Assembly (NCBI GenBank): GCA_017516465.1
Contig: JAFXCR010000029.1
Coordinates: 1-43,113, forward strand
Reading direction: 5' to 3'
Source: Ruminococcus sp.
GTDB lineage: Bacteria; Bacillota; Clostridia; Oscillospirales; Ruminococcaceae
DNA length: 43,113 nucleotides
Part shown: positions 5,181 to 9,096 of the stretch, one piece after another
How the letters are laid out: every line of letters begins with the position of its first letter
Numbering within the stretch: position 1 is the first letter of the stretch
The notes under the pieces: model-generated
The model's database searches: none
What the model saw: only the letters and a program-made list of their open reading frames with translations
Told to the model about the DNA's origin: nothing
Position numbers and translations under genes: made by a program

Positions 5181-5213
5181 TCACAACATAAAGTTATACT
5201 ATAATAGATATAA

Positions 5214-5385
5214 GGCAACACCGCACAAAGATTATGCGTATATTGCACAGTCAGATTTTTCGTTAGGTTGAACAAAAATCCCACAGGCATACTGTCGTAT
5301 GTTAAGGGATTTTTGGACAAGATGACGAAAAAGATGCAAACAAGATGCGTACAAAGACGTCAGGCGGTCTTTGTGCGGTTTTGTC
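5214..5385. mobile_element. MITE-like palindromic element, copy 1
   Basis: The terminal inverted repeats are GGCAACACCGCACAAAG (5214-5230) and CTTTGTGCGGTTTTGTC (5369-5385), matching at 15 of 17 positions when one is inverted. Inside, CAAAAATCCC and GGGATTTTTG form a further inverted repeat, so nearly the whole 172 bp can fold into one long hairpin. There is no transposase gene. A shorter relative with the same ends lies at 23122-23204. The rest of the gap 5181-5623 holds only AT-rich sequence and a hairpin at 5538-5563. Confidence 0.7.
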
Positions 5386-5537
5386 ATAATACAAAAAAGC
5401 AGACAAACACCGTCAAATATGTTTATGATGTTAATAACCACAAAAACACATAACGAAAGAAAGCTTATTGAATATTATAGCACAAGAAGCACGGTTTCGC
5501 CAACGGGTAGTAAAATATGTTTTAAAAACAAATAATC

Positions 5538-5623: not shown

Positions 5624-6946
5624 TTAATTCTTTGTATTGAAAATAAGCTCAATCGGTTCAGAGTTAGGATAATTAATTTCTGTGATAGATAAGGATATAC
5701 TATCATCATCACAGAAGTAAATATGTCCCTTGAGTCCGGTACCATCCTCACTGCCGTAGGTGTTCAGTTTTACTAATCGTCCGGTATGGTCTGAATTGTC
5801 AATTGTTCCAGTAAGAAGTCCTGTCACAAATGTACGGTATTTGCTCAATTTAAATGTCACAACTCCGTCTTCAATTACGGTGATACAAAGCTCATAGCCG
5901 TTTGTATTGTCGTCAACAGTCCATGTACCTACAAAATCGCTATATTCTATAAGCGTCAATTCATCTGTTAGAGCTTCTTCAAGTGCAGCTTCATTCTTAT
6001 TGTTGTATTCTATTACAGCCTGATATTCAGGACAGGCTTCTTTTGCCTGCCACATTATTGCATTACGATTCGTATATTCAGATATTCTCCAGCCGCCGTC
6101 CTCACGGATAAGAGTGATCTGCATAGGATATTCATATTTATAATCGTCACCGAACAAATACATCATTTCTTCGGGAACATAGTAACCATAGTAATCAGAA
6201 AATCCGGAGCCATAGTAAAAAGGTTTGATATGATCTGTGAAATCCATATATACATCGGCAACAATTTTATTTTCATCCTTGCTCTTTATTTCTATTCTTG
6301 AATCAGAAAAATCATAAAAGCCTGCGAAATCTCCGCCCATCCATGTATGATAAAGCTTTCCGTTCTTCTCTCTGAATCCATCAAAAATTTTATCCAGAAG
6401 TTTGTAGTCTGTTGAATATACAGAAAGAACATCCTCTTTCACATTGTCAAGAGTAAGGGTATCTCCCAGAAAAGCGTAGAACGCTTCGTCTTCGTCATAG
6501 ATAATATCTCCACGGTTTACCAGATCATCCACAGTAATATAAGAATCAGATACGTTTATATCGTTTCCTTGTCCGTAGCAGTCAGGGTAGCCGTTCGGAA
6601 ACATTGATTCAAAGCTGTACTCATCAGCAGCTGTAACGTATTTTCTTACAGCTTCGATAATTTCCTCGTCTGTATCTTTTTCCGGATCAATATCGGGAAG
6701 TCCGAGCTTATTGAAATATTTATTGTCATTACCGGAAGATACTATTATCTCAGTCGGTGCTTCTGTCGTAAGCGTTGATATTTCTGTTTCAGATATTGTT
6801 ATCAAATCAGCGGCTCCGGAGCTGTCCGGTTTTGAATCATTGTTTAATTCGTTTTTCTTTCCGCATCCTGTTGTTCCGACTGCGGCAGTAAGTACCCCGC
6901 ATAAAGCGATTCTGCTTGCAATATAAAAAATCTTATTTCTGTTCAT
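5624..6946 (-). CDS. Lipoprotein paralogous to the outer domain of the anti-sigma partner
   Basis: A 440-residue protein with a hydrophobic N-terminal segment ending in a lipobox-like GTTGC (Cys28), then a Ser/Thr/Glu-rich linker. From about residue 67 it matches the extracellular part of the upstream anti-sigma protein: both carry APTEIIV, KYFNKLGLPDIDP or its close equivalent, RKYVTAADEY, and a C-terminal FVGTW or FTGTW beta-type domain of lipocalin-like appearance. It lacks the cytoplasmic anti-sigma segment. Its promoter region shares a block of about 60 bp with that of the sigma gene, so it is probably a regulon member. The function is unknown; it may be a soluble or membrane-tethered ligand binder, or a decoy or modulator of the sensor. 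Confidence 0.8.
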   Translation of the reverse strand: MNRNKIFYIASRIALCGVLTAAVGTTGCGKKNELNNDSKPDSSGAADLITISETEISTLTTEAPTEIIVSSGNDNKYFNKLGLPDIDPEKDTDEEIIEAVRKYVTAADEYSFESMFPNGYPDCYGQGNDINVSDSYITVDDLVNRGDIIYDEDEAFYAFLGDTLTLDNVKEDVLSVYSTDYKLLDKIFDGFREKNGKLYHTWMGGDFAGFYDFSDSRIEIKSKDENKIVADVYMDFTDHIKPFYYGSGFSDYYGYYVPEEMMYLFGDDYKYEYPMQITLIREDGGWRISEYTNRNAIMWQAKEACPEYQAVIEYNNKNEAALEEALTDELTLIEYSDFVGTWTVDDNTNGYELCITVIEDGVVTFKLSKYRTFVTGLLTGTIDNSDHTGRLVKLNTYGSEDGTGLKGHIYFCDDDSISLSITEINYPNSEPIELIFNTKN

Positions 6947-6979
6947 TGTTTATTCCCCTTAAACTATAATTTCTATTCG

Positions 6980-7039
6980 GAAGAACTTCAAAAAATGTTC
7001 TTCTATTTACTACACAATCGGAAGTGCCATTATTGTGCA
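6980..7039 (-). promoter_or_regulatory. Conserved upstream block of the lipoprotein gene (ECF promoter candidate)
   Basis: On the minus strand an inverted repeat TGCACAAT..ATTGTGTA (7039-7032 and 7018-7011) is followed by TAAATA and a hairpin GAAGAAC..GTTCTTC (7003-6997 and 6986-6980). The same elements, with nearly the same spacing, occur in front of the sigma gene at 9038-9096, while the surrounding sequence differs. It is therefore a candidate target of that sigma factor. The exact -35 and -10 boxes cannot be assigned by eye. Confidence 0.6.
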
Positions 7040-7093
7040 GGCGAAAATTTTTTTTTGCAATCAGAAAGTCATATCTTGTACAGATGAATGCGG

Positions 7094-7120
7094 AAAAAAC
7101 GGGCGGAAATTTCCGCCCGT
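7094..7120 (-). terminator. Terminator after the anti-sigma gene
   Basis: A perfect palindrome ACGGGCGGAAATTTCCGCCC is followed by six T on the minus strand. It separates the sigma/anti-sigma operon from the lipoprotein gene, which therefore needs its own promoter. Confidence 0.8.
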
Positions 7121-7136
7121 AGTCTAAACTGTTTTG

Positions 7137-8531
7137 TCAGGTTGATTTTTTGAATACCATTACTTCCAATGATTCAGAACCGGGATAATCAGAATTAACG
7201 ACAAATAATGTTATGCTATTATCGCCATTACAGAAGTTGACAGAGCCCTCTATTCCGTATATATGCTCACTGCCGTAGGTATCGAACATTGCAGTATCCC
7301 TGTATTCGGATTCTATATCTGCTGTTATAAGTTCCGTTGAAAACGCACCGGATTTGCTGAGCTTGAATGTTACTTTGCCGTCTTTTATTGACTCAATATT
7401 AAGTTCATATTCCTCTGATTCATCAGTCCATGTGCCGGTAAAATCGTCATAGTTCAGATTTCTGTAAACATAATCCAGTATATCAAGATACTCCGGACAG
7501 ACTTCCTTTGCCTGCATTGCTATTTTAATACGATTGGTATATTCGGATATTCTCCAGCCGTTGTCCTCACGGATAAGAGTAATCTGCTGAGGATATTCAT
7601 ATTTATAGTTATCATCGAACAGATACTTCATTTCTTCGGGGATTTCATCAAAACGGTTATAACCGGTTGTAACCCAATCGGTAAAATCCATGTATACATC
7701 AGCAACGATTTTATTTTCATCCTTGCTTTGGATTTCTATTTTTGAATCAGAAAAATCATAAAAGCCTTCAAATTCTCCGCCAATCCATTTGCAATATAAT
7801 TTTCCGTTCTTCTCCTTAAAGCAGCTCCAGATTTCATTAAGATGCTTGTAATCCTTTGAATATACGGAAAGTACATCTTCTTTTACACTGTTAAGAGTAA
7901 GTGTGTTTTCCTTGAAAGCATAGAACGCTATGCTATCACTATCAATCAGCAGATTCTCACTTTTTTTCAGATCATCCGAATTATATGGATTATTTTCATC
8001 TCCGTATGCGTAGTTCTCAGGATAGCTGGTGGGAAGCATTGATTCAAAGCAGTACTCATCGGCGGCTGTAACATATTTCCTTATAGCTTCGGTAATTTCC
8101 TCATTTGTATCATTTGCCGGATCAATATCAGGAAGTCCGAGCTTATTGAAATATCCCTTATTATTGACTATTATTTCAGTCGGTGCTTCTGATGTTGTAT
8201 CTATTGTTAATGTTGAAGCTTCAATTACATTTGATTTTGTTTTTTCTTCAGATACAGAGCTGAGGGAATCAGAGTTCTTATTTGATAAACCTTTCATGGC
8301 AAGTCCTATTGCTCCTCCAGCAGCTACAAGTACGCCACAGGCGGCAATCGTGCTGATGGTACGGGTAATCCTGCTTCTGTTTATTGTTTCTACGCCTTCA
8401 ACGGTATTTTCGTATTCGTTTGATGTCATTTTGATTTTAGAAGGCTCTGAAAGCTTTTTTCTCATTTCTGCCTTGAATTCGTCTGTATAATCTATGTTCT
8501 CATATATTTTGCGGAAATCATCTCTTTTCAT
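7137..8531 (-). CDS. Putative membrane-bound anti-sigma factor with large outer sensor domain
   Basis: 464 residues. The N-terminal part of about 55 residues (YENIDYTDEFKAEMRKKL) is cytoplasmic-type and charged. One membrane segment covers about 57-80 (ISTIAACGVLVAAGGAIGLA), and the remainder is a large outer domain. It starts two bases after the ECF sigma gene, the usual sigma/anti-sigma pairing. No zinc-type HxxxCxxC anti-sigma motif is present, so the sigma-binding part would be of another kind. The outer domain is shared with the lipoprotein at 5624-6946. The role is inferred from gene order and topology, not from a recognised domain. Confidence 0.7.
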   Translation of the reverse strand: MKRDDFRKIYENIDYTDEFKAEMRKKLSEPSKIKMTSNEYENTVEGVETINRSRITRTISTIAACGVLVAAGGAIGLAMKGLSNKNSDSLSSVSEEKTKSNVIEASTLTIDTTSEAPTEIIVNNKGYFNKLGLPDIDPANDTNEEITEAIRKYVTAADEYCFESMLPTSYPENYAYGDENNPYNSDDLKKSENLLIDSDSIAFYAFKENTLTLNSVKEDVLSVYSKDYKHLNEIWSCFKEKNGKLYCKWIGGEFEGFYDFSDSKIEIQSKDENKIVADVYMDFTDWVTTGYNRFDEIPEEMKYLFDDNYKYEYPQQITLIREDNGWRISEYTNRIKIAMQAKEVCPEYLDILDYVYRNLNYDDFTGTWTDESEEYELNIESIKDGKVTFKLSKSGAFSTELITADIESEYRDTAMFDTYGSEHIYGIEGSVNFCNGDNSITLFVVNSDYPGSESLEVMVFKKST

Positions 8532-8533
8532 AT

Positions 8534-9013
8534 TTATGCCTCCTCTATCTCAATCTTAAGTTTAGCCCGTCCTCGCCGCAGAAGCGAGCCGACAGTGTTT
8601 TCGCTTTTATCAAGTATCGATGCTATTTCCTTTATTGAGTATCCTTCATAATAGTAAAGAAAAATCACCGATGAATATTTTTCAGGAAGTGCTGCAACAG
8701 CCTCCCGAAGTTCTCTTGCCTGTGTTGTATCCACTGACATAACGGATTCCGGAACAGATTCAAGCTCTGTTCTTACCTTTTGTCTCCAGCTTTTCTTGTA
8801 GTTGATACAGCGGTTTATTGTTGAACGAAGAAGCCATGCTTTGAGGTGTTCATCATCGTTGAAGCTTCGTGGATTTTCGTGGAGCTTAAGGAATACTTCC
8901 TGTGAAATATCCTCTGCCTCGCTGTAATTTCCTACGCAGCAGTAGGCAGTTCTCAGCACAAGCTGACCAAATGTATCAAACGCATATAATGCTGTGAAAT
9001 TCACGTCATTCAT
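8534..9013 (-). CDS. ECF-type RNA polymerase sigma factor
   Basis: 159 residues with region 2 (GNYSEAEDISQEVFLKLHENP, then AWLLRSTINRCINYKK) and region 4 (LPEKYSSVIFLYYYEGYSIKEIASIL, then NTVGSLLRRGRAKLK). It directs RNA polymerase to a specific promoter set and is presumably held inactive by the membrane protein encoded next. The start has AAAGGG upstream. The block at 9038-9096 recurs before the lipoprotein gene, which suggests positive autoregulation, common for ECF factors. The stimulus is unknown. Confidence 0.92.
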   Translation of the reverse strand: MNDVNFTALYAFDTFGQLVLRTAYCCVGNYSEAEDISQEVFLKLHENPRSFNDDEHLKAWLLRSTINRCINYKKSWRQKVRTELESVPESVMSVDTTQARELREAVAALPEKYSSVIFLYYYEGYSIKEIASILDKSENTVGSLLRRGRAKLKIEIEEA

Positions 9014-9037
9014 TTCATTATCACACCCTTTTTGCGT

Positions 9038-9096
9038 GAAGAACCTCCGGAATGTTCTTCTATTTAATACACAATCGGCAATGCCATAATTGTGCA
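9038..9096 (-). promoter_or_regulatory. Conserved upstream block of the sigma gene (autoregulation candidate)
   Basis: TGCACAAT..ATTGTGTA (9096-9089 and 9075-9068), then TTAAATA and hairpin arms GAAGAAC (9060-9054) and GTTCTTC (9044-9038). It matches the block at 6980-7039 at most positions between 9096 and 9054, well above the surrounding similarity. Confidence 0.6.

What the first reader, a model, noticed from the sequence alone, without database searches (positions are those of the whole stretch)
5624..9096. ECF sigma, membrane partner and a free lipoprotein copy of the partner's outer domain, with shared promoter blocks
Seen: the sigma gene and the candidate anti-sigma gene are two bases apart; the next gene encodes a lipoprotein sharing the partner's outer domain but not its cytoplasmic end. 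The sigma and lipoprotein genes share an upstream block (TGCACAAT..ATTGTGTA, then a GAAGAAC..GTTCTTC hairpin) at 9038-9096 and 6980-7039, while a terminator separates the transcripts. Inference: the sigma factor drives itself and a tethered copy of its sensor domain, which could titrate a ligand or act as feedback on the signal.
Basis: partly seen in the sequence, partly recalled or inferred. Interest (0 to 1): 0.72.

Follow-up and report, generated by a model that had tools for sequence, protein, structure and literature searches.

The report
Sigma factor drives its sensor's copy
In a gut Ruminococcus, a gene-switching protein appears to turn on both itself and a surface-anchored spare copy of its own sensor, a copy that seems to have been made when a deletion fused the switch's promoter to the sensor gene; what the sensor detects is unknown.

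Summary
An ECF sigma gene (8534-9013) and a membrane partner (7137-8531), minus strand, are followed after a strong terminator by a lipoprotein gene (5624-6946) 53% identical to the partner from residue 50 on. The shared block contains a promoter: TGCA[CT]-N17-TTGT lies at or before the start of 19 of 22 close sigma relatives in the genus at one fixed spacing (shuffles: mean 0.08), and of 0 of 11 more distant ones. The TGCACAAT/ATTGTGTA palindrome is incidental: other members have TGCACGAAA/TTGTATA. The partner's cytoplasmic segment matches 25 of 27 candidate anti-sigmas, its outer domain only 5, so the family is modular. The lipoprotein's origin is readable: sigma promoter and leader hairpin run straight into a frame-broken remnant of anti-sigma codons 38-49, then its ATG. 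In 35 loci examined only this one has such a copy; its dN/dS against the partner (0.35) suggests purifying selection. Most likely it is a sensor-domain copy freed from sigma binding, made under sigma control to bind the sensor's ligand at the surface. New variant of a known kind.

The parts
8534..9013 (-). ECF sigma factor gene (159 aa, regions 2 and 4 only)
   Evidence: orthologues in G050 and G041 are 93% and 96% identical
7137..8531 (-). single-pass membrane partner, candidate anti-sigma factor (464 aa): cytoplasmic 1-~55, hydrophobic stretch 61-79, outer domain
5624..6946 (-). lipoprotein gene (440 aa): signal peptide with Cys28 aligned to the partner's membrane stretch, plus the outer domain
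   Evidence: NG86 dN/dS 0.35 against the partner
9068..9096 (-). sigma promoter: TGCAC box at 9092-9096, TTGTGT box at 9069-9074
7011..7039 (-). lipoprotein promoter, same two boxes: TGCAC 7035-7039, TTGTGT 7012-7017
9038..9060 (-). leader hairpin of the sigma transcript, 7 pairs
   Evidence: 4 of 200 shuffles fold as well in a window fitted to the hairpin; in a longer window 32 of 200
6980..7003 (-). leader hairpin of the lipoprotein transcript, 7 pairs
   Evidence: 0 of 200 shuffles in a fitted window; 11 of 200 in a longer one
6947..6979 (-). frame-broken remnant of anti-sigma coding sequence between hairpin and lipoprotein ATG
   Evidence: score 34; 0 of 5000 mono- and 0 of 2000 dinucleotide shuffles reach it, 1 of 17124 tiled 45-mers of the window does (the two homologous places left out)
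8385..8418 (-). the matching intact stretch in the anti-sigma gene, codons 38-49
7099..7120 (-). intrinsic terminator between partner and lipoprotein genes

Best explanation
This is an autoregulated ECF sigma/anti-sigma operon of a family with swappable outer domains, and the third gene is an anti-sigma copy that lost its sigma-binding half. Supported by sequence: the promoter class, the modular partner, and the fused origin of the lipoprotein. Inferred: when the partner's outer domain meets its ligand at the cell surface the sigma factor is released, transcribes its own operon and the lipoprotein, and the lipoprotein, unable to hold sigma, accumulates outside and binds the same ligand. It would thus neutralise the agent and, by the same act, damp the signal, without adding anti-sigma to the cytoplasm.
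For: Promoter: 19 of 22 sigma genes at least 51% identical have TGCA[CT]-N17-TTGT (searched from 220 bases before to 160 bases into the called frame); the 14 other gap lengths tried together give 1 gene; shuffles mean 0.08, max 2; 0 of 11 distant genes. A genus-wide exact scan with one form gave 20 hits, 16 directly before a sigma gene of this family, 1 control hit. Lipoprotein promoter: 42/46 with its sigma's, spacer 10/13 against 5-7/13 with relatives, above the 68% coding identity. Origin: the remnant abuts the hairpin. Modularity: cytoplasmic part matches 25 of 27, outer part 5 of 27, window included. Lipoprotein lacks partner residues 1-49. Precedent: RsiV senses and inhibits lysozyme (PMC5014341, passages).
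Against: No ligand, contact, transcription or localisation was measured. The lipoprotein was found in one genome of 125 (many genomes incomplete, at most 13 candidates scored per genome), so the relatives' circuits seem to work without it. The lipobox TTGC is atypical at -3. The promoter lacks the AAC/CGT boxes of canonical ECFs (PMC8103513, passages). A looser pattern gave 31 sites: 8 before sigma genes, 1 the lipoprotein, 22 others, against 6 control hits, so other targets may exist. The two outer domains differ at 44-47% of positions and could bind different ligands. In the tree the lipoprotein does not group with its own genome's partner, though support is weak (86/91).
Confidence: 0.6

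Rival explanations
1. The lipoprotein is a duplicate that took up a new job: it kept the promoter but its outer domain now binds another ligand or partner. (The odds given for rivals are not exclusive of each other.)
For: Only 53-56% identical to the partner; the outer domain evolves fast while sigma stays 93-96% identical between species.
Against: The lipoprotein is no more diverged from the partners than the partners of three species are from each other (53-56% in all six pairs), so no sign of a special shift.
Confidence: 0.25
2. The shared block is only a leftover of a duplication; the lipoprotein is expressed from another promoter or not at all.
For: Duplication is clear, and weaker similarity extends above the promoter; a sigma-70-like match lies at 6991-6963; gene conversion could have kept the blocks alike.
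Against: 42/46 alike although synonymous divergence is high (dS 0.93; P 2e-4 against 68% identity), both boxes intact, 440-codon frame kept at dN/dS 0.35. Sigma-70-like matches are at chance level: 16 found, 14.6 expected.
Confidence: 0.1
3. The TGCACAAT/ATTGTGTA inverted repeat is the operator of a repressor or activator, not a sigma promoter.
For: In the four closest sites the boxes are nearly palindromic; an unrelated TGCACAA..TTGTGCA palindrome exists before an mraZ-like gene.
Against: Other family members keep positions and spacing but lose the palindrome; the motif follows the sigma family (16 of 20 hits).
Confidence: 0.06
4. The lipoprotein modulates proteolysis: it pairs with, or shields, the partner's outer domain or competes for the protease that cuts it.
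For: Homologous outer domains on the same membrane face could associate; a lipoprotein, CseA, takes part in the control of the ECF SigE of Streptomyces (PMC8999054, passage).
Against: Nothing in the sequence results points to association; not testable here.
Confidence: 0.15

Closest known systems
SigV/RsiV of Bacillus subtilis
   Same: ECF sigma held by a membrane anti-sigma whose outer domain is the receptor; there the receptor also inhibits its ligand lysozyme (PMC5014341, passages); an autoregulatory circuit (PMC8287880, title and start of abstract in a listing)
   Different: no DUF3298/DUF4163 match in any of 7 members at E<=1; here a separate lipoprotein copy of the sensor exists; ligand unknown
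SigI/RsgI paralogue sets of cellulolytic clostridia
   Same: several paralogous sigma factors with limited cross-talk (PMC6056542, abstract); variable outer domains (recalled)
   Different: our sigma is an ECF by regions 2 and 4; no RsgI-type domain among the matches at E<=1
SigE/CseA of Streptomyces coelicolor
   Same: lipoprotein tied to an ECF response (PMC8999054, passage)
   Different: SigE is under a two-component system with CseA; whether CseA resembles any anti-sigma sensor was not tested here

Membership tests
ECF (group IV) sigma factors | only sigma regions 2 and 4, short linker | tested here: met
   region 2 at 13-75, region 4 at 100-152 of 159 aa
ECF (group IV) sigma factors | adjacent single-pass anti-sigma factor | tested here: inconclusive
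   gap 2 bases, one hydrophobic stretch at 61-79; sigma binding itself not shown
ECF (group IV) sigma factors | positive autoregulation | tested here: inconclusive
   conserved promoter class with 19 of 22 sigma genes; no transcription data
ECF (group IV) sigma factors | canonical AAC (-35) and CGT (-10) boxes | tested here: not met
   TGCAC and TTGT instead; the review says later definitions kept only the two-domain criterion (PMC8103513, passage)
RsiV-type anti-sigma | DUF4163 and DUF3298 | tested here: not met
   no match at E<=1 in 7 members
zinc-binding anti-sigma (ZAS) | zinc-finger anti-sigma Pfam domain | tested here: not met
   no match at E<=1
IseA endopeptidase inhibitor | Pfam PF16800 above its cut-off | tested here: not met
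   lipoprotein 20.2 bits against 29.9; 3 of 7 members at E<=1
bacterial lipoproteins | signal peptide ending in a lipobox cysteine | tested here: inconclusive
   VGTTGC at Cys28 by eye, -3 residue atypical; no predictor run

The most novel reading that the evidence does not exclude
In this sigma family the sensor is the effector: the family's promoter, in its strict forms, is found mostly before its own sigma/anti-sigma operons, so the main thing these circuits make more of may be the outer domain itself, and in this species a deletion split off a pure effector version of that domain.
Probability: 0.3. Interest if true: 0.72.

Novelty: new variant of a known kind. Interest (0 to 1): 0.5.

Why it matters
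It gives a readable record of how a signalling receptor can give rise to a free surface protein: a deletion joins the regulator's own promoter to the receptor's outer half, and the membrane helix becomes a signal peptide. It also gives a testable promoter code for a modular ECF family in gut Ruminococcus on which my paper searches listed nothing, and a receptor-only protein that could be used to fish for the unknown ligand.

Tried and rejected
Palindromic operator: rejected because other family members lose the palindrome but keep boxes and spacing. Mobile or scattered repeat: rejected, the block occurs twice in the genome. TGCACAAT-N14-ATTGTGTA sites in four genomes, this one included, have another spacing and unrelated neighbours. 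A wider regulon: in the own genome a relaxed scan gave 9 hits against 2 control hits: the two window sites, a paralogous sigma gene with its own promoter (C48, L101), a site 133 bases before a gene that by eye encodes a C1-type protease (C19, L089; may be chance), a palindrome hit on both strands before an mraZ-like gene (C51), and three sites without a gene of this family; the extended motif with up to 2 mismatches left the two window sites plus that palindrome. That these sigma factors serve only themselves cannot be claimed from these scans, because the patterns were made from sigma promoters. Known outer-domain family or solved relative: none convincing. Other lipoprotein copies next to family members: none seen in 35 loci, which cover all places matched (ORFs of 90 aa or more). 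Named relatives by the lipoprotein alone: none. Leader hairpin as a family feature: the G042, G040 and G061 leaders fold no better than shuffles (96-199 of 200 shuffles fold as well). Paper searches listed no paper that by its listing treats a sigma-driven lipoprotein copy of an anti-sigma sensor; the library lacks most subscription journals.
Full report
WHAT IS THERE. Three minus-strand genes: an ECF sigma factor (8534-9013), a membrane protein with one hydrophobic stretch two bases downstream (7137-8531) and, past a strong terminator (7120-7099), a lipoprotein (5624-6946). The sigma protein has regions 2 and 4 only. The lipoprotein is 53% identical to the membrane protein over 441 columns, and its first residue falls on residue 50 of it, just before the membrane stretch; that stretch has become a signal peptide with a cysteine at position 28.

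THE SHARED BLOCK CONTAINS A PROMOTER. The 46-base block is found twice in the assembly, up to 3 mismatches, with no control hits, and in none of the other 124 genus genomes at that stringency. A looser form (TGCACAAT, 8-16 bases, ATTGTGTA) gave 8 sites: the two here, the sigma orthologues of G041 and G050, and four sites with one more base of spacing and unrelated neighbours. I then fetched 35 loci covering every place matched by the partner protein in the genus, found 33 sigma homologues, and looked around the start of each, from 220 bases before to 160 bases into the called frame, because mechanical frames often start too early. TGCA[CT]-N17-TTGT is present in 19 of the 22 sigma genes that are at least 51% identical to this one; the other three keep TGCA[CT] at the same spacing with GTGT or ACGT. 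None of the 11 more distant genes has it. Gaps of 10-24 bases other than 17 give 1 gene in all. Shuffled sequences give 0.08 genes on average, at most 2. Many members read TGCACGAAA...TTGTATA, which is not palindromic, so the palindrome seen here is incidental. The boxes differ from the AAC/CGT pair given as typical of ECFs (PMC8103513, passages).

INDEPENDENT CHECK. Scanning the 125 genomes for the form TGCACGAAA-N13-TTGTNT gave 20 exact hits, one in each of 20 genomes, against 1 control hit; 16 of the 20 lie directly before a sigma gene of this family, including sigma genes that I had not fetched before; four do not. One is a second family member of this same genome (G000:C48), so paralogues have distinguishable promoters; the lipoprotein's promoter matches the version of its neighbour. 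The form closest to this locus, TGCAYAAW-N14-TTGTGTW, is less specific: 31 sites, 8 before sigma genes, 1 the lipoprotein, 22 elsewhere (21 of them looked at), 6 control hits. One of the 22, in G042, lies 135 bases before a secreted protein that by eye has dockerin-like repeats and an HExxH motif. Further targets therefore cannot be excluded.

THE PARTNER IS MODULAR. Of the 33 sigma genes 27 had a downstream partner by my gene-calling rule. The first 60 residues of the window's partner match 25 of the 27 (itself included, E up to 5.4e-5), the outer part only 5 (itself included). A conserved cytoplasmic segment next to a conserved sigma, with exchanged outer domains, is what an anti-sigma domain with swappable sensors should look like; contact with sigma is inferred, not shown. 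G061 carries a longer outer part in which the second half matches this family.

HOW THE LIPOPROTEIN AROSE. Sigma and lipoprotein leaders align closely from the block to the end of the hairpin; a weaker, A/T-rich similarity, not tested against chance, reaches about 55 bases above the block. Directly after the hairpin (6980) the lipoprotein leader stops resembling the sigma leader and matches anti-sigma codons 38-49 (8385-8418) with a one-base gap and two TAA stops (6947-6979), up to the ATG. The match score is reached by 0 of 5000 mono- and 0 of 2000 dinucleotide shuffles and by 1 of 17124 tiled 45-mers of the window with the two homologous places left out (in one search, without leaving these out, 4 of 5000 random 45-mers). 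The simplest history is a copy of the operon in which a deletion removed the sigma gene and the first 37 or so codons of the anti-sigma gene, joining promoter and leader to the outer half.

AGE AND SELECTION. Synonymous divergence between the two copies (0.93) is like that between this species and G050 (0.96), and dN/dS is 0.28-0.38 over the six pairs, 0.35 for the two copies; dS this high is imprecise. The tree places the partner with G041 (86/91, below the strong-support mark) rather than with the lipoprotein, so the duplication does not look recent and may predate the species split, with loss elsewhere. Against that background 42 of 46 promoter bases alike is more than coding identity predicts (P 2e-4). 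Gene conversion could also explain part of this.

LEADER HAIRPIN. Four leaders (both here, G050, G041) fold into a 6-7 pair stem just below the TTGT box, and between this species and G050 two pairs swap G-C with A-U; G041 uses a shifted stem. In windows fitted to the hairpin 4 (sigma), 0 (lipoprotein), 14 (G050) and 0 (G041) of 200 shuffles fold as well; in longer windows the sigma leader is unremarkable, 32 of 200. G042, G040 and G061 leaders show no clear stem. I treat it as a minor feature, perhaps for mRNA stability.

WHERE IT COMES FROM. Two relatives can be named by their contig lengths: G050 is MAG Ruminococcus sp. RGIG4258 (roe deer colon) and G041 MAG Ruminococcus sp. SIG537. In a draw of 396 genomes of the family, 126 genera, the outer-domain profile matched 2 genomes at E<=1e-8, both of this genus.

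HOW IT WORKS. Best reading: ligand outside releases sigma; sigma makes more sigma and partner and, here, a tethered outer domain that cannot hold sigma. Binding the ligand would both neutralise it and damp the signal. RsiV is a precedent for a sensor that is also effector: it binds lysozyme, triggers SigV, and inhibits lysozyme (PMC5014341, passages). Rivals are a new ligand for the lipoprotein, modulation of proteolysis, an inert leftover and a palindromic operator; the last two are the least likely. No outer-domain family was recognised: IseA-type inhibitor matches are below the cut-off and no solved relative was found by sequence.

VERDICT. A well-supported promoter and a clear evolutionary story, with an inferred function. 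New variant of a known kind; interest 0.5.

Noticed in passing
window 5203-5390: About 190-base element with terminal inverted repeats (ACCGCACAAAGA..TCTTTGTGCGGT) that folds very strongly; a 78% identical copy (188 bases) lies in the G041 contig (L057 724-911) and end pieces in G002 (L077). Looks like a MITE; no Rfam match in the window.
   Followed up: partly
L016/L054 (G042:C84), 187 and 80 bases before the sigma start: The sigma promoter and leader are present twice in tandem in front of one sigma gene.
   Followed up: partly
L128/L165 (G042:C25:11888-11919): An exact match to the close-type promoter 135 bases before a secreted protein that by eye has dockerin-like repeats and an HExxH motif; possible further target.
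   Followed up: partly
L017/L050 (G061:C7): Anti-sigma of 650 aa whose outer part seems to combine two outer domains, the second related to this family.
   Followed up: no
L102 (G000:C51:11696-11724): Palindrome TGCACAA-N15-TTGTGCA before an mraZ-like gene (by eye), perhaps the site of another regulator.
   Followed up: no
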